The position numbers were made by a program, and so were the translations under genes. From Rhizohabitans arisaemae (GTDB taxonomy: Bacteria; Actinomycetota; Actinomycetes; Streptosporangiales; Streptosporangiaceae): a stretch of 64,000 nt of DNA. Of this stretch, positions 17,818 through 26,084 are shown one piece after another (the first letter of the stretch is position 1; each line of letters starts with the position of its first letter). A model generated the notes under the pieces. It was not told the DNA's origin. It saw nothing but the letters and a program-made list of their open reading frames with translations, and searched no databases. The stretch covers positions 248,001 through 312,000 of the forward strand of contig NZ_BLRH01000055.1 in assembly GCF_025996515.1 (NCBI RefSeq), given 5' to 3'.

Positions 17818-20055
17818 ATGGCTGCTCGAAGTCGGACTATTCGCTTCAGGCTCTACTCGGTACTCCTCATCCCCAGTCTTACCCTCATCGCACTATGGGG
17901 CTATGTATCGGGTTACCTGATCGGGGACGTCTTCGAGCTCCTTCGGGCGAGCGCGCTGCACACCACATACGCGGCGCCCTCGACCGACCTGGCCCTCCAG
18001 CTCCAGCGGGAACGGCTGACGAGCTCGGTCTATCTAAGCGTCCGGACCTCGGGAAACGGAGAACTCACCGAGCAGCGCGGTAAAACCGACCAATCACTGA
18101 ACACATTCAGACAGCAGATCAATTCTCTTGAAGCCGAGACTTTGACGGATTCCGTCATCGTTCCCCGACTCGCCAGAATCAACGAGGAACTCGGCAAGCT
18201 CCAGCAGATCCGCGACGGAGTCGACGCCGGCAGATCCAGCCGGCTGGACGCGATCACCGGCTACAACCGGATCCTGGACGCCATCTACCGCCTCTCCGAC
18301 CAGCTCGTCCTCGTCCCCGACATCGGGATCTACCAGCAGGCGCGCGGTCTTCAGCTCCTCGACCACGCCAGGGAGCAGTTCGCCCGGGAGGACGCCCTGA
18401 TCTCGGGCGCCATCCGACAGGGACAGATCACCCCGGCGGAGCACCTCGCGTTCACCACGATGGTGGCCAACCGGCGCTTCCTCTACGACGAGGGCCTGGA
18501 GCAGATCGACGGCGAACTCCGCGGCCCGTGGGAGCGCCTCCTGCTGTCCAACCCCTACACCCGGCTCGCGGCACTCGAAGACAAGATCATCGCATCGCGC
18601 ACCCTCCCGGCCGCCTCCTGGGGGAGCGTCACCGACCAGCTCGACTCCACGATCAACCAGATCTCGGCCGACTCCGCCAACCTGATCGCCGCCCGAGCCC
18701 AATCGGTCCCCTCCGGCGTGATCCTCCGGCTCGTCATCGCCGGCGGCATCGGCCTGATCGCGATCATCGTCGCCATCGCGATGACCGTCCGCTTCGGGCG
18801 GCGGGTGTCGACGGACCTCGCCAACCTCCGGACCTCCGCGCTCGACCTGGCCGAGGTACGGCTGCCGCGGGTCGTGGAGAAGCTCCGCACCGGCCAGCGG
18901 GTCGAGGTCGCCGCCGAGGCGCCGCCCCTCGACCTCGGCGGCATGAACGAGACCGAAGAGATCAAGGGTGTCGGCCAGGCGTTCTCCACCGTCCAGCGGA
19001 CCGCCGTCGAGGCCGCCGTCGGCCAGGCCGAACTCCGCAAGGGGGTCAACCAGGTCTTCCTCAACCTGGCCCGGCGCAGCCAGACCCTCCTGCATCGCCA
19101 GCTCACCCAGCTCGACGCCATGCAGCGGCGCATCCACGAGCCCGAGACCCTGGAAGATCTCTTCCGCGTCGACCACCTCACCACCCGAATGCGGCGCCAC
19201 GCGGAGAACCTGATCATTCTGTCGGGTTCGTCCCCGGGCCGGGCCTGGCGCAAGGCCGTCCCCATCCTGGACGTGGTGCGCGGCTCCATCTCCGAGGTCG
19301 AGGACTACTCCCGGGTCACCGTGCACCCGTTCCCGGCCACCCGGTTGAAGGGCCCCGCGGTCGCCGACATCACCCACCTCGTCGCCGAGCTCGTCGAGAA
19401 CGCGACGATCTACTCCCCGCCCGACACCCACGCGCATGTGAGCGGCGAAGTCGTCGGCAACGGATTCGTCATCGAGATCGAGGACCGCGGGCTCGGCATC
19501 CCCAAGGAGAGACTCGCCGAGATCAACGAACGGCTCGCCACCCCCCAGGAGTTCAACCTCTCCGACAGCGACCAGATGGGGCTCTTCGTCGTCGGCCGTC
19601 TCGCGGAACGTCACGGCGTCCGCGTGATGCTTCAGCCCTCGCCCTACGGCGGAACGACCGCCATCGTGCTGCTCCCACAGACGATCTTGGAGGAGACCGA
19701 GGATGTCGCACCCGTGTTGACCACCGCGGGGGGAACGTTCACCCATCCCAAATCCGCCCCCGCGCCGAGTCCCTTCTCCGGCGAGCGGGCCTCATCCCGC
19801 GCCGACGCCCCGGTGAGCGGGCTCCCCGTCATCGGTGTGGCCGGGGACCCCGATCCCGGCGACTCCGCGGCCCTGCCCCGGCGCATCCGCCAGACCCACC
19901 TCGCGCCGCAGCTCCGCGACGGAGGAGGCACCCCGCCGCCGGCCGTCGAAGCCGACGACCCCATCCCCACTCCCGAGCAGGCCAGATCCGTCCTGACCTC
20001 CCTCGCCCGGGGACGTCGACGCCTGGAGGAGGAAGAGCGGGGGACGGAGTCGTGA
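17818..20055 (+). CDS. Conservon sensor kinase-like protein (CvnA type)
   Basis: 745 residues. There is an N-terminal membrane helix (LYSVLLIPSLTLIALWGY), an extracellular nitrate/nitrite-sensing-like helical region (~50-290), a second helix (LRLVIAGGIGLIAIIVAIAM), a HAMP-like linker, and an HATPase_c domain with LVAELVENATIYSPP (N box), EDRGLGIP and GLFVVGRLAERHG. No classical phospho-accepting His dimerisation motif is evident, as in other CvnA proteins. The tail (~610-745) is proline-rich and disordered. In Streptomyces CvnA works with a roadblock protein (B), a DUF742 protein (C) and a GTPase (D); here only C follows. GAGGTGG precedes the ATG. Confidence 0.88.
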   Translation: MAARSRTIRFRLYSVLLIPSLTLIALWGYVSGYLIGDVFELLRASALHTTYAAPSTDLALQLQRERLTSSVYLSVRTSGNGELTEQRGKTDQSLNTFRQQINSLEAETLTDSVIVPRLARINEELGKLQQIRDGVDAGRSSRLDAITGYNRILDAIYRLSDQLVLVPDIGIYQQARGLQLLDHAREQFAREDALISGAIRQGQITPAEHLAFTTMVANRRFLYDEGLEQIDGELRGPWERLLLSNPYTRLAALEDKIIASRTLPAASWGSVTDQLDSTINQISADSANLIAARAQSVPSGVILRLVIAGGIGLIAIIVAIAMTVRFGRRVSTDLANLRTSALDLAEVRLPRVVEKLRTGQRVEVAAEAPPLDLGGMNETEEIKGVGQAFSTVQRTAVEAAVGQAELRKGVNQVFLNLARRSQTLLHRQLTQLDAMQRRIHEPETLEDLFRVDHLTTRMRRHAENLIILSGSSPGRAWRKAVPILDVVRGSISEVEDYSRVTVHPFPATRLKGPAVADITHLVAELVENATIYSPPDTHAHVSGEVVGNGFVIEIEDRGLGIPKERLAEINERLATPQEFNLSDSDQMGLFVVGRLAERHGVRVMLQPSPYGGTTAIVLLPQTILEETEDVAPVLTTAGGTFTHPKSAPAPSPFSGERASSRADAPVSGLPVIGVAGDPDPGDSAALPRRIRQTHLAPQLRDGGGTPPPAVEADDPIPTPEQARSVLTSLARGRRRLEEEERGTES

Positions 20056-20101
20056 GCCGACCCTCCCCCGAACCCCGACATCCGGCCCACCAGGGGGCGC
20101 G

Positions 20102-20470
20102 ATGAGCGAGCACGAGGGCATGTGGGTCGACGAGGACGCCGGCCCCCTGGTCCGCCCGTACACACTGACCCGCGGCCGGGCCCGCCCGTCCAAGGAGATC
20201 ATCGACCTCATCGCGATCGTCATCACGACAGGGGTCCTTCCGCAGGGGGCGGCGAGCCCCGAACAGCTGCACATCCTGCGCATCTGTCGGCGCGCCACCT
20301 CGCTCGCCGAGGTGGCCTCCGAGCTCGACCTGCCGCTCGGCGTGGTCCGGGTACTGGTGAGCGACCTGCACGATCAGGGCATGGTCACGGTACGGCCGCC
20401 GGCGCCCATCGCCCAGCTGCCCAGCGAGCGTATTCTGCGCGAAGTCATCAACGGGCTCCGCGCCCTGTGA
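20102..20470 (+). CDS. DUF742 protein (CvnC type)
   Basis: 122 residues. It contains GPLVRPYTLTRGRARPS, the DUF742 hallmark, followed by a winged-helix-like region (ATSLAEVASELDLPLGVVRV, LVSDLHDQGMVTV). In conservons this protein bridges the CvnA kinase to the CvnD GTPase. It starts 46 nt after the cvnA-like gene, and there is no room for a CvnB gene between them. No GTPase follows; the next gene is on the other strand. The pair is therefore an incomplete conservon, or its partners are elsewhere in the genome. Confidence 0.88.
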   Translation: MSEHEGMWVDEDAGPLVRPYTLTRGRARPSKEIIDLIAIVITTGVLPQGAASPEQLHILRICRRATSLAEVASELDLPLGVVRVLVSDLHDQGMVTVRPPAPIAQLPSERILREVINGLRAL

Positions 20471-21268: not shown

Positions 21269-22357
21269 ATGGATCTCGCTCAACTGCTCCACCGGCATGC
21301 GGACATCCGCCTCGTCGAGCACACCCCGGGCCGGCCCGCCCTCATCCGCCGCGACGACCTGCTCGTCCCCGGCGCCGACGCCGACCGGGCCGAGCGCGCC
21401 CTGGGCCGGTGGACCGCCCGGCGCGGCGGCACCGCCGGCGTCGGCCGCCTCACCCTGCGGCCCGCGGCCAAGGTGGACGTGTGCGAGCTCGCCGACACCC
21501 TCGGGTACGGGCGCCCCAACCACGTCCTGTTCGGCCAGCCCCTCTGGTGGGGCGGCCCCGCCGACCGGCCCGAACCCGCCGCCCCGCTCCCGGCGCCGCG
21601 TCCCTCCGCGTCCGCCAGGCGGATCACCGTCGCGCTGCCCGACACCGGGATCGCCGACCACCCCTGGTACAGCGGGGCGGACTGGTTCCTGGAGCAGGAC
21701 CGGGACGCCGTGGAGGTCCTGGACGCCGACCGCGACGAGATCCTCGACTCCCAGGCCGGGCACGGCACCTTCATCGCCGGGCTCATCCTGCGCCAGGCCC
21801 CCTCCGCCCGGCTGCTGGCCTGCCGCATCCTCGGCAGCGACGGGGTGGGCGACGAGCTCGGCCTCATCCGCGGACTGGACTATCTGCGCGGGCGGCGAAT
21901 CGATCTGATCAATCTCTCCCTGGGTGGGTACACCTACGACGACCGCCCTTCCCCGCTGGTGCTGGACAGCCTCGGCGCCTTCCCCGACAGCGTGGTCGTC
22001 GCCTGCGCCGGCAACGGCGGCGACCGGCGGCCCTTCTGGCCCGCGGCCCTCCCCGGGGTCGTCGGCGTGGCGGCCCTCGACGCCGCCGAGAACGCCCGCG
22101 CCCCGTACGCCGGGCACGGCCCCTGGGTCGACGCCTGCTCCCGAGGCGACCGGCTGACGAGCACCTTCGTCACCTTCGGCTCCCATCGGGGTTATGCCAC
22201 CTGGAGCGGATCCTCGTTCGCCTCCGCCGTGGTGGCCGGCGCGATCGCCGCCTGCGGCGAACGGCACGGCCTGCCGATCGGCGAGGCCCGTGACCGGATC
22301 CTGGCCGGGGACAGGCGTATCCCCGATCTCGGGGTGCTCGTCCCCACCCCACGCTAG
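21269..22357 (+). CDS. Cytoplasmic S8 (subtilisin-like) serine protease
   Basis: 362 residues. Catalytic residues are Asp125 in LPDTGIAD, His165 in GHGTFIAG and Ser316 in SGSSFASA, with the oxyanion Asn249 in CAGNGGD. There is no signal peptide, propeptide cleavage motif or membrane anchor, so it should act inside the cell, which is unusual for subtilases. The first ~110 residues form a separate domain (RPALIRRDDLLVPGADADRA, LRPAAKVDVCELADTL) that I do not recognise; it could be a prodomain or interaction module. A sigma factor, a small protein and a CHAT protease follow on the same strand, suggesting a shared pathway. AGGGGGG precedes the ATG. Confidence 0.88.
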   Translation: MDLAQLLHRHADIRLVEHTPGRPALIRRDDLLVPGADADRAERALGRWTARRGGTAGVGRLTLRPAAKVDVCELADTLGYGRPNHVLFGQPLWWGGPADRPEPAAPLPAPRPSASARRITVALPDTGIADHPWYSGADWFLEQDRDAVEVLDADRDEILDSQAGHGTFIAGLILRQAPSARLLACRILGSDGVGDELGLIRGLDYLRGRRIDLINLSLGGYTYDDRPSPLVLDSLGAFPDSVVVACAGNGGDRRPFWPAALPGVVGVAALDAAENARAPYAGHGPWVDACSRGDRLTSTFVTFGSHRGYATWSGSSFASAVVAGAIAACGERHGLPIGEARDRILAGDRRIPDLGVLVPTPR

Positions 22358-22396
22358 AGTGACCGGGGCGTCACTTTACGTGAAGGACGGGATTCC

Positions 22397-22942
22397 ATGA
22401 CCGTGGACGGAGTCGAGCACCTCGTCGGTGCCGCCCTCGCCGACGATCAGGAGGCGTGGAACGCGATCGTGGCCCGGTTCGAAAGACGCCTCTGGCTCAC
22501 CGCACGCGCGTGCGGCCTGAACGCCGCCGACGCGGCCGACGCCGTCCAGACGGCCTGGCTCCGCCTGGTGGAAAACCTGGACTCCATCCGCGATCCGGCC
22601 CGGATCGGCGGCTGGCTCACCACGACCACCCGCAACGAGGCGTCCCGGCTCCGGCGCCGCCGGGCGGCCGAGCGGCTGGTGCCGTGCCCACCCGAGACCG
22701 CCGAGTCCGAGGATGACCCGGTGTTCACCGTGATCGAGACCGACGGGCGGGATCGGCTGGCCCAGGCGATCGAGGCACTGCACGAACCCTGCCGCACCCT
22801 CCTCGGCATGCTCCTGTCCCACGCCGAACCCAGCTACGCCAGGCTCGCCGCCGAGCTCGGCGTGCCGCTCGGCAGCATCGGGCCGACCCGCTCCCGCTGT
22901 CTGGCCCGGCTCCGTGCCCGGCTCGCGCCGGGCACCCCCTGA
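22397..22942 (+). CDS. ECF-type RNA polymerase sigma factor
   Basis: 181 residues with the two domains of group IV sigma factors. Region 2 is residues ~5-90 (AWNAIVARFERRLWLTARAC, AADAADAVQTAWLRLVEN, IGGWLTTTTRNEASRLRRRR). Region 4 is residues ~120-178 (AIEALHEPCRTLLGMLL, YARLAAELGVPLGSIGPTRSR). It lies 39 nt after the subtilase gene and 14 nt before the next start. No classic transmembrane or zinc anti-sigma factor is encoded nearby; the following small protein or the CHAT protein may take that role (inference). The proteases on either side recall systems in which proteolysis frees a sigma factor. Confidence 0.9.
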   Translation: MTVDGVEHLVGAALADDQEAWNAIVARFERRLWLTARACGLNAADAADAVQTAWLRLVENLDSIRDPARIGGWLTTTTRNEASRLRRRRAAERLVPCPPETAESEDDPVFTVIETDGRDRLAQAIEALHEPCRTLLGMLLSHAEPSYARLAAELGVPLGSIGPTRSRCLARLRARLAPGTP

Positions 22943-22956
22943 CCCCGGAGGCGACC

Positions 22957-23421
22957 CTGACACCCGACGAGGAAGACAGCCTGCTGCGTGCCCTGCGCGT
23001 CGCCGCCGGTGCCGATCCGGTACCGGCGCACGTCACCCGGGCCGCCCGGGCCGCCTTCGCCTACCGGATACCCGGCGCCGTCTTCGCCGAACGCATCGCG
23101 TCGCCCCCCTCCGGGGAGCCGGGGGTACGCTGCTCACCCGGCCCCGGCCTCCCCCGGATCCTGCGCTTCGCCGCCCCCGACCTCACCGTCGACGTCGAGG
23201 TCGCGCAGACTGCCGACGGACTCGACCTCGTCGGACAGGTGCTGCCCTGGGATCGGGTGACCGAGGTGGAGATCCGCACCGCGGAGAACCGGACCCGCCG
23301 CCCGCTCTCCGAAGCCGGCCAGTTCGCCGCGGCCGGGATCCGCCCGGGCCGCCTCAGCCTGGTCTGTCACCGGACCGGTCTGCCTCCCGTCGCCACACGC
23401 TGGCTGCACCTGCCCTCGTGA
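22957..23421 (+). CDS. Unknown 154-residue protein between sigma factor and CHAT genes, CTG start
   Basis: The reading frame has no ATG, GTG or TTG until GTG 23239, but protein-like, codon-biased sequence runs in frame from 22942. CTG at 22957 has GGAGG 5 nt upstream and gives LTPDEEDSLLRALRVAAGAD, so I take it as the start. The rest has an AARAAFAYRIPGAVFAERI helix and a beta-rich half (LRFAAPDLTVDVEVAQ, GLDLVGQVLPWDRVTEVEIR, GRLSLVCHRT). I do not recognise a named domain. It overlaps the CHAT start (GTGA) and follows the sigma stop by 14 nt. Adaptor, regulator of the sigma factor, or CHAT substrate are all possible. Confidence 0.7.
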   Translation: MTPDEEDSLLRALRVAAGADPVPAHVTRAARAAFAYRIPGAVFAERIASPPSGEPGVRCSPGPGLPRILRFAAPDLTVDVEVAQTADGLDLVGQVLPWDRVTEVEIRTAENRTRRPLSEAGQFAAAGIRPGRLSLVCHRTGLPPVATRWLHLPS

Positions 23422-26084
23422 GCGCGCTGCGGCCCGCCCGGGCTCGGAAAGGCCCCGCGACCCCCGAGGACACCCCGGCGAACAGGGCCGACCAGGCGGT
23501 CGACCTGGCCTCCACCGACCCCGGCCGGGCCCGGGCCGAAGCCCTCGCCGTCCTCGCCGACCCGGGCGCCGTCCCGGCGGAGCGGTCCACCGCCCACCGC
23601 GCCCTCGGTCTGGCGACCAGGGAGCTCGGCGACCTCACCGGCGCCCGGGACCACCTGATCACCGCGATCACCGTCGCCGAGGGGGCCGGGCTCACCGTCC
23701 ACGCCGCCCGGGCGAAGTCCTCGCTCGTCACCGTCGAAGGCGAACGCGGCGACCTCGCCGGCGCCCTGTCCCTCGCCGACGACGCCCGGCCCCACCTGAG
23801 CGGGGAGGACCTCGCCAGGCTCTCCGTACAGCGGGGCGTGATCCTCGCCAGGCTGGGACGGCCCCGCGAGGCGGTGCGCCTCTTCGACGACGCGCTCACG
23901 GCGCTGACCGGGGACACCCGGTACCGGACCGGCACCCTCCTCAACCGAGGGCTCACCCTCGCCTACCTCGGCGACCTCGACCGGGCGGAGCGGGACCTGC
24001 GCACCTGCGCCGAACTGGCCCACGGCAGCGGCCACCGCCACCTCGCCGCCCTGGCCCGGAGCAACCTCGCGTTCATCTCGGTCCGCCGGGACGACCTGCC
24101 CGCGGCGTTCGCCCACACCGCGGCCGCCGAACCGCTGCTGTCGGCCTACCCTGAGCGGCTCGCCGGGATGTGGGTCGACCTCGCAGAGGCGCTTCTCGCC
24201 GCCCACCTGCCCGGGGAAGCCCGGGTCACGCTGGGGCGGGCCTTGCCGGTGCTGGAGGACACCGGCTCGCTCGCCGGGCTGGCCGAGGCCCGCCTCCTCC
24301 TCGCCCGGGCCGAACTGCTCGCCGGGGAGCCGAGAAGGGCCCTGGCCACCGCCGGAACCGCGCGGCGGGAGTTCGAGGCCCAGCGCCGTACCGGCTGGAC
24401 GCCGCTCGCCGACGACGTGGCCGTACACGCGCGGCTCGCCGTCGACGGCGCCGACGGGACTCTGCTGGCGGACGCCCGGCGGCTCGCCGCCCACCTGGCC
24501 GAAGCGGGATGGCCCACCGAATCCGCGCAGACCCACCTGACCGCGGCGCGGATCGCGCTGCTCCTCGGCGAAGACCGGACGGCCCGGATCGAGCTCGACG
24601 CGGTCCTCGCCGCCCGGGGCGACGGCCTGACCGCGATCACGGCCCGCCGGCATGCGCAGGCGTTGCAGCGGCTGTCGGCCGGGAACCGCCGAGGGGCCTT
24701 CGCCGCGCTCCGGGCGGGCCTGCGGGCCGTCGCCGCGCGGACGTCGGGGTTCGGCGCGCCCGACCTGCGGGCGCACGCCGTGCACCGGGGACGGGAACTG
24801 GCCGACCTGGGGGTGGCCCTCGCCCTCCGCACCGGGCGCGCCGTCACGGTCCTGGCGTGGGAAGAGCTGCGACGAGGGGTCGTGACCGGTCCGGCGACCC
24901 GCCCCGCCGGCCGCCGCGGACTCGCCGCGCTGCGCCGTACCGACTCCGAGCTGCGCGCCCGGGGAGGCGGCGGGGACACCGCCCGGCTGCGCGCCGAACG
25001 AGCGCGGCTGGAGGAGGCGGTACGGCGCGAGCACCGCCGGTTGACCGCCGTCGGCGGTTCCGCCGCGGCCACCCCGGACCCGGCCCTGCTCCGGGCCGCC
25101 GTGGGCGAGGCCGCGCTGCTGGAGTTCGTCCGCGACGGGGGCCGGCTCTCCGTCGTGGTGATCACCGCACGGCGATGCGTCCTGCGCACGCTGTGCGACT
25201 ACCCGGAGGTCGCCGGTCGGATCGCACGACTCCGGTACGGGCTGCGCCGGCTCGTGCTGCGCGACGCCTCCGCTCGCGCGGTCGCCGCCGCCGAGCAGGG
25301 GGTCGCCGCGGAGGCCGCCGCCCTGGACCGGCTGCTGTTCGGGCCGATCTCCACGGTCATCGGCGACCGGGCGCTCGTCGTCGTCCCCGTGGGGCCGCTC
25401 GCCGCCCTGCCCTGGACGGTCCTCCCCCGCCTGGCCGGACGACACATCTGCGTCGCCCCCTCCGCCGCGCGATGGCTGACGGCCGCGACCCGGCCACCCG
25501 GTGCCGGACCGGTGATCGCCGTCGCCGGGCCCGGGCTGAGGTTCGCGTCCCGGGAGGCGGCGATGGTACGGCGCCTGCACCCCGGCACCCGGATCGTCCG
25601 CGCCGCCTCCGCCCCGGTGCTCCGCGCGCTCGACGGCGCGTCCCTCGCCCACCTCGCCACCCACGGGGAGTTCCGCGCGGACAGTCCCCTCTTCTCCGGC
25701 CTGTCCCTGCGCGACGGGCCGCTCTTCGCCTACGACCTGCTGCGGCTACGGCGGGCACCCGCCCTGACGATCCTCTCCTCGTGCGACGCGGGGCTCGCCG
25801 TCAGCCCGGTCGAGGGGGCGCCGCTCGGCCTGGTCGGCTCGTTCCTCGACCTGGGCGGCTCCTGCGTCGTCGCCGGGGTGGTCCCGGTCGACGACGAGCG
25901 GACCCACGCCTTCATGGAGGTGTTCCACGGGCTGCTCGCCACCGGGCGCCCGGCCGCCGAGGCCCTGGCGACGGCGAGCGTCACGACGGAGGTCGCCGGG
26001 TTCGTCTGCTTCGGCGCGGGTGATCAGAGAGTGGCGACCGGCCGGGACGGATCCTCGATCCAGTTCGACCAGGATCCGACGTAG
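23418..26084 (+). CDS. TPR-CHAT (caspase-like) protease
   Basis: 888 residues from a GTG overlapping the previous stop. Residues ~20-450 are helical TPR-like repeats (AHRALGLATRELGDLTGARD, TLLNRGLTLAYLGDLDRAER, ARSNLAFISVRRDDLPAAFA). Residues ~560-880 are a CHAT domain with the His749-Cys789 dyad in LATHGEF and LSSCDAG. The fold is shared with caspases and with Csx29 of type III-E CRISPR. The dyad is intact, so it is probably an active cysteine protease controlled through the TPR part. The end of the gene overlaps the convergent sulfurtransferase gene by 61 bp; the CHAT fold proper ends at CFGAG, and the last ~20 residues lie in the overlap. Confidence 0.9.
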   Translation: MSALRPARARKGPATPEDTPANRADQAVDLASTDPGRARAEALAVLADPGAVPAERSTAHRALGLATRELGDLTGARDHLITAITVAEGAGLTVHAARAKSSLVTVEGERGDLAGALSLADDARPHLSGEDLARLSVQRGVILARLGRPREAVRLFDDALTALTGDTRYRTGTLLNRGLTLAYLGDLDRAERDLRTCAELAHGSGHRHLAALARSNLAFISVRRDDLPAAFAHTAAAEPLLSAYPERLAGMWVDLAEALLAAHLPGEARVTLGRALPVLEDTGSLAGLAEARLLLARAELLAGEPRRALATAGTARREFEAQRRTGWTPLADDVAVHARLAVDGADGTLLADARRLAAHLAEAGWPTESAQTHLTAARIALLLGEDRTARIELDAVLAARGDGLTAITARRHAQALQRLSAGNRRGAFAALRAGLRAVAARTSGFGAPDLRAHAVHRGRELADLGVALALRTGRAVTVLAWEELRRGVVTGPATRPAGRRGLAALRRTDSELRARGGGGDTARLRAERARLEEAVRREHRRLTAVGGSAAATPDPALLRAAVGEAALLEFVRDGGRLSVVVITARRCVLRTLCDYPEVAGRIARLRYGLRRLVLRDASARAVAAAEQGVAAEAAALDRLLFGPISTVIGDRALVVVPVGPLAALPWTVLPRLAGRHICVAPSAARWLTAATRPPGAGPVIAVAGPGLRFASREAAMVRRLHPGTRIVRAASAPVLRALDGASLAHLATHGEFRADSPLFSGLSLRDGPLFAYDLLRLRRAPALTILSSCDAGLAVSPVEGAPLGLVGSFLDLGGSCVVAGVVPVDDERTHAFMEVFHGLLATGRPAAEALATASVTTEVAGFVCFGAGDQRVATGRDGSSIQFDQDPT

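What the first reader, a model, noticed from the sequence alone, without database searches (positions are those of the whole stretch)
21269..26084. Protease-sigma-CHAT cluster: a candidate undescribed proteolytic signalling or cell-death system
Four co-directional genes encode an intracellular subtilase (D125/H165/S316), an ECF sigma factor, a 154-residue unknown protein and an 888-residue TPR-CHAT protease with an intact His749-Cys789 dyad. The last three are packed with a 14-nt gap and a GTGA overlap. In type III-E CRISPR a TPR-CHAT protease (Csx29) cleaves a protein that restrains an RpoE-like sigma factor. Here the same ingredients occur without CRISPR, plus a second protease that could mature or be activated by CHAT. 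The cascade is inference; the gene content and motifs are seen.
Basis: partly seen in the sequence, partly recalled or inferred. Interest (0 to 1): 0.82.

Follow-up and report, generated by a model that had tools for sequence, protein, structure and literature searches.

The report
Sigma factor with CHAT-protease release switch
Four neighbouring genes that recur together across many actinobacteria look like a stress switch in which a separase-like protease cuts a small inhibitor to free a transcription factor; the gene grouping was already in print, but the inhibitor role and the likely cut site are new proposals and easy to test.

Summary
The four genes are real, at the stated coordinates, with intact catalytic residues. 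Their association is strongly conserved: SIG+SML+CHAT occur together in 59 of 62 CHAT-centred loci of the same family and 72 of 80 named GTDB loci; all four in 44 and 67. It is not undescribed: a 2022 review names carboxypeptidase, subtilase and CHAT domains as the conserved context of ECF54 sigma factors and proposes proteolytic control without an anti-sigma factor (PMC8999054). I add three things. (1) The 154-residue protein (SML) looks like no peptidase: 31 of 56 relatives match the carboxypeptidase-regulatory-like beta-sandwich at E up to 1. Of twelve distant SMLs, 10 match an anti-sigma family N-terminally at E up to 5, best 5e-5. (2) SML has a near-invariant Arg58 in a variable linker; [VALIT]R[GSAD] occurs in 134 of 148 linkers (weighted 87%; 28% after shuffling). 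(3) CHAT folds like separase and Csx29. Best explanation: TPR-sensed CHAT cuts SML after Arg58 and releases the sigma factor, a CRISPR-free parallel of Csx29/Csx30/sigma. Sigma binding and cleavage are inferred, not shown. I found no support for cell death.

The parts
21269..22357 (+). SUB: S8 subtilase; no signal peptide seen by eye; Asp125, His165, Ser316
   Evidence: Pfam PF00082 1.5e-22; D/H/N/S columns identical in 46 of 46 relatives
22397..22942 (+). SIG: ECF sigma factor, 181 aa (region 4 not matched by Pfam, but covered by TIGR02937)
   Evidence: Pfam Sigma70_r2 2.1e-10; TIGR02937 8.7e-17, residues 19-176, above its cut-off
22939..23421 (+). SML: small protein (160 aa from CTG at 22939, or 154 aa from CTG at 22957); two N-terminal helices, linker, beta-sandwich; proposed anti-sigma factor and CHAT substrate
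   Evidence: AlphaFold2 pLDDT 90.0, pTM 0.75; 31 of 56 relatives, not the window protein itself, match PF13620 at E up to 1; profile-profile match to A5, whose N-terminus is anti-sigma-like
23128..23130 (+). Arg58 codon of SML (154-aa numbering), proposed cut GVR|C
   Evidence: R at weighted frequency 0.99 over 149 unique relatives; linker motif test; cleavage itself is inference
23418..26084 (+). CHAT: TPR solenoid (residues 20 to about 487) and separase-like CHAT protease; overlaps the SML stop as GTGA
   Evidence: Pfam CHAT 1.8e-24; model pLDDT 93.4, pTM 0.92; fold matches
25662..25664 (+). catalytic His749 codon
   Evidence: H in 43 of 43 of A4
25782..25784 (+). catalytic Cys789 codon
   Evidence: C in 43 of 43 of A4

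Best explanation
A cytoplasmic sigma-release switch. SML binds and holds the ECF sigma factor (inferred). The TPR solenoid of CHAT senses an unknown ligand or protein and unlocks the separase-like protease (inferred). CHAT then cuts SML after the near-invariant Arg58 in its flexible linker, parting the N-terminal sigma-binding part from the beta-sandwich (inferred from conservation). The subtilase works beside CHAT, most likely to clear the cut inhibitor so that the sigma factor is fully released (weak inference; in the CRISPR parallel the cut Csx30-N fragment stays on RpoE and further degradation is suggested, PMC9729208 and PMC10028731). Shown: gene content, intact active sites, linkage, co-occurrence when unlinked, conservation of the Arg site, predicted folds, and an anti-sigma-like N-terminus in distant SML relatives.
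For: Linkage. SML-centred phylum search: 28 of 296 genomes; of the 30 loci fetched (own genome not counted), SIG lies directly beside SML in 25 (my count), CHAT within about 7 kb in 20, SUB in 19. Co-occurrence: 26 of 28 SML genomes (E up to 1e-3) also have the CHAT type (E up to 1e-30; 38 of 296 overall), Fisher p 6.5e-26, not corrected for relatedness. Of 8 genomes with an SML locus lacking CHAT in the fetched stretch, 7 have CHAT elsewhere; of the 8 such CHAT loci fetched, 7 have SUB beside CHAT. Anti-sigma: NF052375 'anti-sigma factor' matches 10 of 12 distant SMLs at E up to 5 (best 5.3e-5; residues 12-79 in the first, 5.8e-4); zf-HC2 4 of 12 (best 0.015), RskA_N 1 of 12; A5 and A1 are homologous (prob 96.8, pairwise E 2e-10, 124 columns). 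Cut site; G-x-R invariant in 12 of 12 distant SMLs. Protease: separase and Csx29 folds. Glu713 and Asp826 are invariant in 43 of 43; they lie early in the helix after strand 1 and at the start of the helix after strand 5 of the protease (my strand numbering), where P1-Arg-binding acids are placed in gingipain, MALT1 and a separase model (PMC4626109). Partial distance correlations are highest for SUB-CHAT 0.49, SML-CHAT 0.44, SIG-SML 0.42.
Against: The canonical SML N-terminus (two helices) is not itself recognised as anti-sigma (an HMM of the A5 N-terminus finds 0 of 56), and the anti-sigma hits in A5 are far below the curated cut-off. The CHAT residue that I align with the separase P1-Arg acid (near 830) is variable. 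Arg58 is kept in 9 of 9 SMLs whose fetched stretch has no CHAT, including G368, where no CHAT was found at all, so it may have a structural role. The window's own site is GVRC, outside the strict motif. Csx30, the parallel substrate, has no essential residue at its cut (PMC10028731), so a fixed Arg is not required by the analogy. In the length-matched distance analysis SML-CHAT falls to 0.30, and the 37 ordered loci do not show the chain clearly. No ECF-type promoter motif was found. No binding or cleavage data exist.
Confidence: 0.42

Rival explanations
1. As published for ECF54: there is no anti-sigma factor; the proteases keep the sigma factor itself low by degrading it, and the small protein is an accessory adaptor.
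For: Proposed in PMC8999054 from gene context.
Against: Distant SMLs have an anti-sigma-like N-terminus; the isolated conserved Arg is in SML, and no comparable lone residue stands in a gap-rich stretch of SIG; SIG and SML overlap by 4 nt in 28 of 60 pairs, as sigma/anti-sigma pairs often do (recalled).
Confidence: 0.2
2. Arg58 is a structural or sigma-contact residue and CHAT has another substrate; SML is an anti-sigma factor released by ligand binding to its beta-sandwich.
For: Arg58 kept in 9 of 9 SMLs without CHAT in the fetched stretch; carboxypeptidase-regulatory-like folds are often binding domains (recalled).
Against: The linker is of low confidence (residues 51-60 mean pLDDT 63) and gap-rich; in 7 of 8 such genomes CHAT is elsewhere; the motif includes the flanking residues.
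Confidence: 0.2
3. The subtilase, not CHAT, cuts SML (or starts the cascade), and CHAT acts on the subtilase or elsewhere.
For: SUB and CHAT travel together even when SIG-SML is elsewhere.
Against: 16 of 62 loci have no SUB in the fetched stretch, and the 15 SMLs read from them keep Arg58; SUB could be elsewhere in those genomes (not searched).
Confidence: 0.1
4. An abortive-infection or cell-death module.
For: TPR-CHAT proteases act in type III-E CRISPR defence (PMC10028731); PADLOC gave a weak BovA hit to CHAT, 0.0028.
Against: 54 of 62 loci share flanks (DUF3145 and/or rhodanese), i.e. a stable chromosomal place; SML found only one plasmid record, 11.9 Mb, of chromosome size; the CHAT domain found one short phage record.
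Confidence: 0.06

Closest known systems
ECF54 sigma-factor gene context (PMC8999054, passages seen; the primary papers Casas-Pastor 2021 and Huang 2015 are not held)
   Same: ECF sigma factor next to a carboxypeptidase-type domain, a subtilase and CHAT
   Different: Described there as having no anti-sigma factor; here the carboxypeptidase-type protein is a beta-sandwich protein and a candidate anti-sigma factor. Sequence membership in ECF54 could not be tested.
CASP/Craspase: Csx29 - Csx30 - CASP-sigma of type III-E CRISPR (PMC10028731, PMC9729208, passages)
   Same: TPR-CHAT protease, sigma factor and a third protein as inhibitor and substrate; similar fold (8eey Foldseek E 7.1e-15; 7y83 Z 27.2, rmsd 3.7, 384 aligned)
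   Different: No CRISPR array found in 8000-40000; the sensor would be a long TPR solenoid, not an RNA-guided complex; a subtilase is added; SML gave no Csx30 hit in the PDB sequence search
DdvA, 'transmembrane anti-sigma factor' (PDB 8rot/8rw5); DdvA is the anti-sigma of the ECF sigma DdvS in Myxococcus xanthus (PMC4374960, passages; that the PDB entry is this protein is assumed from the name)
   Same: CHAT-containing protein tied to an ECF sigma factor; best sequence hit of the CHAT profile in the PDB (4.3e-12)
   Different: There one membrane protein is itself called the anti-sigma factor; here sigma, small protein and CHAT are separate
EACC2-caspase systems with ECF sigma and a DUF1822 TPR protein (PMC8195603, passages)
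   Same: caspase-like peptidase genes next to an ECF sigma factor, with a proposal of protease-triggered transcription
   Different: Other domains (EACC2, TRADD-N, DUF1822) that were not matched here by Pfam
Separase
   Same: helical N-terminus plus caspase-like protease; ctSPD 5fc2 Z 27.9, rmsd 3.1, 307 aligned; separases cut after Arg (PMC4626109, passages)
   Different: The position that I align with separase D2151 is not conserved in this family

Membership tests
ECF54 context group | ECF sigma with carboxypeptidase-type, subtilase and CHAT neighbours | tested here: met
   the carboxypeptidase-type domain is recognised in relatives (31 of 56 at E up to 1), not in the window protein itself
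ECF54 context group | sigma sequence falls in the ECF54 profile | not testable with these tools
   No ECF54 model or reference sequence on hand; NCBIfam passes its cut-off for the ECF superfamily only, among the 25 rows shown
ECF54 context group | no anti-sigma factor | tested here: inconclusive
   Distant SMLs have an anti-sigma-like N-terminus; the window SML has none that is recognisable
CASP / type III-E CRISPR | TPR-CHAT (Csx29-like) protease | tested here: met
CASP / type III-E CRISPR | CRISPR array at the locus | tested here: not met
   Only one two-copy, 74% repeat in 8000-40000
CASP / type III-E CRISPR | Cas7-11 at the locus | tested here: inconclusive
   No Cas family among 20 flanking ORFs scanned; not every ORF was scanned
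CASP / type III-E CRISPR | Csx30 homologue | tested here: inconclusive
   No Csx30 hit for A1 in PDB sequences; fold lists do not exclude it
Anti-sigma factor (SML) | anti-sigma domain at the N-terminus | tested here: inconclusive
   10 of 12 distant SMLs at E up to 5, best 5.3e-5, below curated cut-off; 0 of 56 canonical SMLs with the A5 N-terminal HMM
Anti-sigma factor (SML) | binds the cognate sigma factor | not testable with these tools
   no complex modelling or binding data
Clan CD protease with Arg specificity | acidic S1 residues | tested here: inconclusive
   Glu713, Asp826 invariant 43 of 43; position 830 variable; geometry not examined
S8 subtilase | Asp/His/Ser triad | tested here: met

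The most novel reading that the evidence does not exclude
ECF54-type loci are a widespread, CRISPR-free relative of the Csx29/Csx30/sigma pathway: a TPR-gated, separase-like protease cuts a previously unrecognised cytosolic anti-sigma factor after one near-invariant Arg, with a subtilase as second protease. The published statement that these sigma factors lack an anti-sigma factor would be wrong, and type III-E CRISPR may have taken its protease-sigma output from such a chromosomal switch.
Probability: 0.35. Interest if true: 0.78.

Novelty: new member of a known kind. Interest (0 to 1): 0.52.

Why it matters
ECF54-type sigma factors have a published context and, in the one review seen, a proposed but untested mechanism. 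A named inhibitor, a named protease and a single candidate cut residue make the question testable in one protein-cleavage experiment. If true, it gives bacteria a separase-like, RNA-free way to turn an internal signal into transcription and offers a plausible ancestor for the CRISPR protease output.

Tried and rejected
Promoter search: no GGAAC/CGT ECF-type pair above the reverse strand upstream of SUB, SIG or CHAT apart from one near tie (CHAT, GAAC-CGT: 3 forward, 2 reverse of 58). Several relatives (L051, L071, L076, L079, L084) instead show TTGACA-type -35 boxes with TACACT-like -10 boxes before SUB (read by eye); the window shows no consensus promoter. De novo words upstream of SUB were not interpretable, since the windows ran into coding sequence. 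Flank clustering for a shared effector gave conserved chromosomal neighbours and antisense shadows and no effector that I recognised. Conserved Arg in the SUB linker: none. SML fold search: only generic Ig/FN3-like matches, best Foldseek E 0.043, best Z 8.1. Mixed SIG/SML alignment for a pseudo-complex (A3): the SML-only rows had 10-20% identity to the first row, which I took as misalignment, so it was not folded.

CHAT-only genomes: of 12 with CHAT but no SML at the first threshold, 9 have SIG, SML and SUB beside CHAT on inspection with refined profiles (L207, L209-L216), 3 do not (G356, G108, G248; L205, L206, L208). SML hit G106 (L203, E 5.6e-5) has no SIG, CHAT or SUB in the fetched stretch and is probably spurious. 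Rows without Arg in column 58: L073 (Arg next to the column), L152 (odd sequence), L132 (partial). Rows left out of A1: L052, L060, L073, L085, L091, L094 (56 used of 62). L045 was left out of the distance analysis because it holds two clusters. CHAT was not in the isolated-residue comparison. Of the 93 family genomes with a CHAT match, loci of 59 were fetched (60 loci; G086 twice); for G098 and G099 I did not take the top-scoring match.
Full report
OBSERVATION. The catalytic residues named are right and conserved in relatives: subtilase 46 of 46, CHAT 63 of 64 rows, the odd row looking spurious. The 154-residue gene must start at CTG; the homologous start is probably CTG 22939, overlapping the sigma stop as CTGA, since 28 of 60 relatives overlap by 4 nt.

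LINKAGE. I searched 100 genomes of the same family with the CHAT protein (93 matched) and fetched 60 high-ranking CHAT loci from 59 of them, chosen by the CHAT match alone. With the second copy in the own genome and the window that makes 62 loci: 44 have all four families and 59 have SIG, SML and CHAT. Most share a chromosomal place: DUF3145 or rhodanese flanks in 54 of 62. Inheritance alone could therefore explain much of this set. Three other tests go beyond it. Eight loci (L033, in the own genome, and L043, L044, L045, L047, L048, L050, L052) have none of the tested flanks and hold the families in other orders, though L043 and L044 gave no SIG hit. Of the 80 best named GTDB loci (416 matches; the search pattern came from this CHAT subfamily), 67 have all four and 72 have SIG+SML+CHAT; of the 8 others, five are stretches under 9 kb. 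A search across the phylum starting from SML found it in 28 of 296 genomes; of the 30 loci fetched, SIG sits directly beside it in 25 (my count), CHAT is within about 7 kb in 20, SUB in 19.

CO-OCCURRENCE WITHOUT LINKAGE. In the phylum sample the CHAT type (E up to 1e-30) occurs in 38 of 296 genomes and in 26 of the 28 with SML (E up to 1e-3): Fisher p 6.5e-26, relatedness not corrected, and assuming that both searches drew the same 296 genomes, as the handles shown suggest. Eight genomes have an SML locus without CHAT in the fetched stretch (in five of them SIG is beside SML; some stretches end at a contig end). Seven of the eight have CHAT elsewhere, one (G368) has none. Of the eight such CHAT loci fetched (L217-L224, from seven genomes), seven have SUB in the stretch. 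Nine of the 12 apparent CHAT-only genomes proved to have SIG, SML and SUB as well, three did not. So there seem to be two modules, SIG-SML and SUB-CHAT, that go together even when apart. The own genome has two SML and two full-length CHAT copies.

THE SMALL PROTEIN. AlphaFold2 with 56 rows gives pLDDT 90, pTM 0.75: helices 3-16 and 24-35, then a beta-sandwich; residues 51-60 average pLDDT 63 and 61-70 average 77. At E up to 1, 31 of 56 relatives match the carboxypeptidase-regulatory-like domain (best 7.4e-7); the window protein itself matches nothing. This is not a peptidase, and it probably explains the 'carboxypeptidase' in the published ECF54 context (inference). In 12 SML-position proteins of a distant family (f19; A5) the beta-sandwich is kept (12 of 12 match PF13620 at E up to 5, best 2.2e-5), but the N-terminal half is longer. 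It matches NCBIfam 'anti-sigma factor' in 10 of 12 at E up to 5 (best 5.3e-5) and zf-HC2 in 4 of 12 (best 0.015); these are below curated cut-offs where shown. The PDB anti-sigma factor RskA appears at E 0.99 only. A1 and A5 are homologous by profile comparison (prob 96.8, pairwise E 2e-10, 124 columns). The A5 N-terminus alone finds none of the 56 canonical SMLs, so the anti-sigma assignment of the window protein rests on homology through the rest of the chain.

THE ARGININE. Over 149 unique SMLs (effective number 94) Arg58 has weighted frequency 0.99 (146 of 149 rows), while its neighbours average 0.26 and the surroundings are 65% gaps; no other column at or above 0.9 in SML, SIG or SUB is so isolated (CHAT not compared). 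To check for an alignment artefact I took the linkers alone (cut out by alignment columns): [VALIT]R[GSAD] occurs in 134 of 148 (weighted 0.867) against a mean of 0.276 and a maximum of 0.419 in 1000 within-linker shuffles; of 60 linkers with one Arg, 57 have it in the motif. The window itself has GVRC, with Cys after the Arg, and is one of the 14 outside the strict motif. The distant A5 group keeps G-x-R in 12 of 12. A lone fixed Arg in a flexible linker is what a protease site would look like; a structural or binding role is not excluded, and 9 of 9 SMLs without CHAT in the fetched stretch keep it.

THE PROTEASE. The CHAT model (pLDDT 93.4, pTM 0.92) is a TPR solenoid to about residue 487 and a caspase-like protease. 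Foldseek ranks human separase first (E 1.3e-16), with Csx29 (8eey, 7.1e-15) and DdvA (8rw5, 6.6e-13) close by. VIA ranks eukaryotic TPR proteins first (8jaq Z 30.8); ctSPD 5fc2 has Z 27.9, rmsd 3.1, 307 aligned, and 7y83 TPR-CHAT Z 27.2, rmsd 3.7, 384 aligned; the TPR part also resembles MalT domain III and Rap/NprR receptors (Z about 24-29), though TPR folds match each other widely. Separases cut after Arg, and modelling places Arg-binding acids near the helix after strand 1 and in the helix after strand 5 (PMC4626109, passages); Glu713 and Asp826 lie there by my strand numbering and are invariant in 43 of 43. Against this, PMC9729208 (passages) aligns separase D2151 with Csx29 K670, and by my reading of the sequence alignment the matching residue here is near 830 and variable.

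COEVOLUTION. In 69 loci with all four families, partial rank correlations of distances are SUB-CHAT 0.49, SML-CHAT 0.44, SIG-SML 0.42, SIG-CHAT 0.26, SUB-SIG 0.18, SUB-SML -0.01. Length-matched values are SIG-SML 0.50, SUB-CHAT 0.38, SML-CHAT 0.30, SUB-SIG 0.24, SIG-CHAT 0.22, SUB-SML 0.10. This fits a chain SUB-CHAT-SML-SIG, but the 37 ordered loci alone do not show it clearly, and distances are not independent. I give it little weight.

LITERATURE. PMC8999054 section 3.3 states the ECF54 context and proposes proteolytic control without an anti-sigma factor (passages); Table 2 gives a Geodermatophilus model sequence. Casas-Pastor 2021 and Huang 2015 are not held. In PMC10028731 the TPR-CHAT protease Csx29 cuts the sigma inhibitor Csx30, no single residue being essential for the cut (passages); in PMC9729208 the cut Csx30-N stays with RpoE (passages), which leaves room for a second protease such as the subtilase here. 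In the listings I saw no paper on an anti-sigma role of the small protein, a cut site, or an experiment on such a locus; most subscription papers and the ECF54 supplements were not seen.

VERDICT. Real, strongly conserved and already noted in print as a gene context. The mechanism proposed here (SML as anti-sigma factor, cut by CHAT at Arg58) is new in detail as far as these searches reach, moderately supported and directly testable. No evidence for cell death was found.

Noticed in passing
window 22358-22375: Between SUB and SIG lies an inverted repeat AGTGAC-CGGGGC-GTCACT, followed by TTTACG; function not examined.
   Followed up: no
L033 (G000:C8:488000-504000): Second, diverged copy of all four families in the own genome, with SUB opposite in direction to CHAT, SIG and SML.
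   Followed up: partly
L045: Two CHAT genes end to end, with a SIG-SML pair on either side and one SUB.
   Followed up: no
G196:C7:21838-28085: Two CHAT domains about 5 kb apart on one strand.
   Followed up: no
window 17818-20470: Nitrate/nitrite-sensing histidine kinase followed by a DUF742 gene, reminiscent of part of an actinobacterial conservon (recalled).
   Followed up: no
MT838002.1:4069-4707 (phage collection): An unannotated 7.5-kb 'Bacteriophage sp.' record encodes a CHAT relative, 36% identity over 61% of the query.
   Followed up: no
L217, L218: In two genomes whose SML locus lies elsewhere, CHAT and SUB form a divergent pair.
   Followed up: partly
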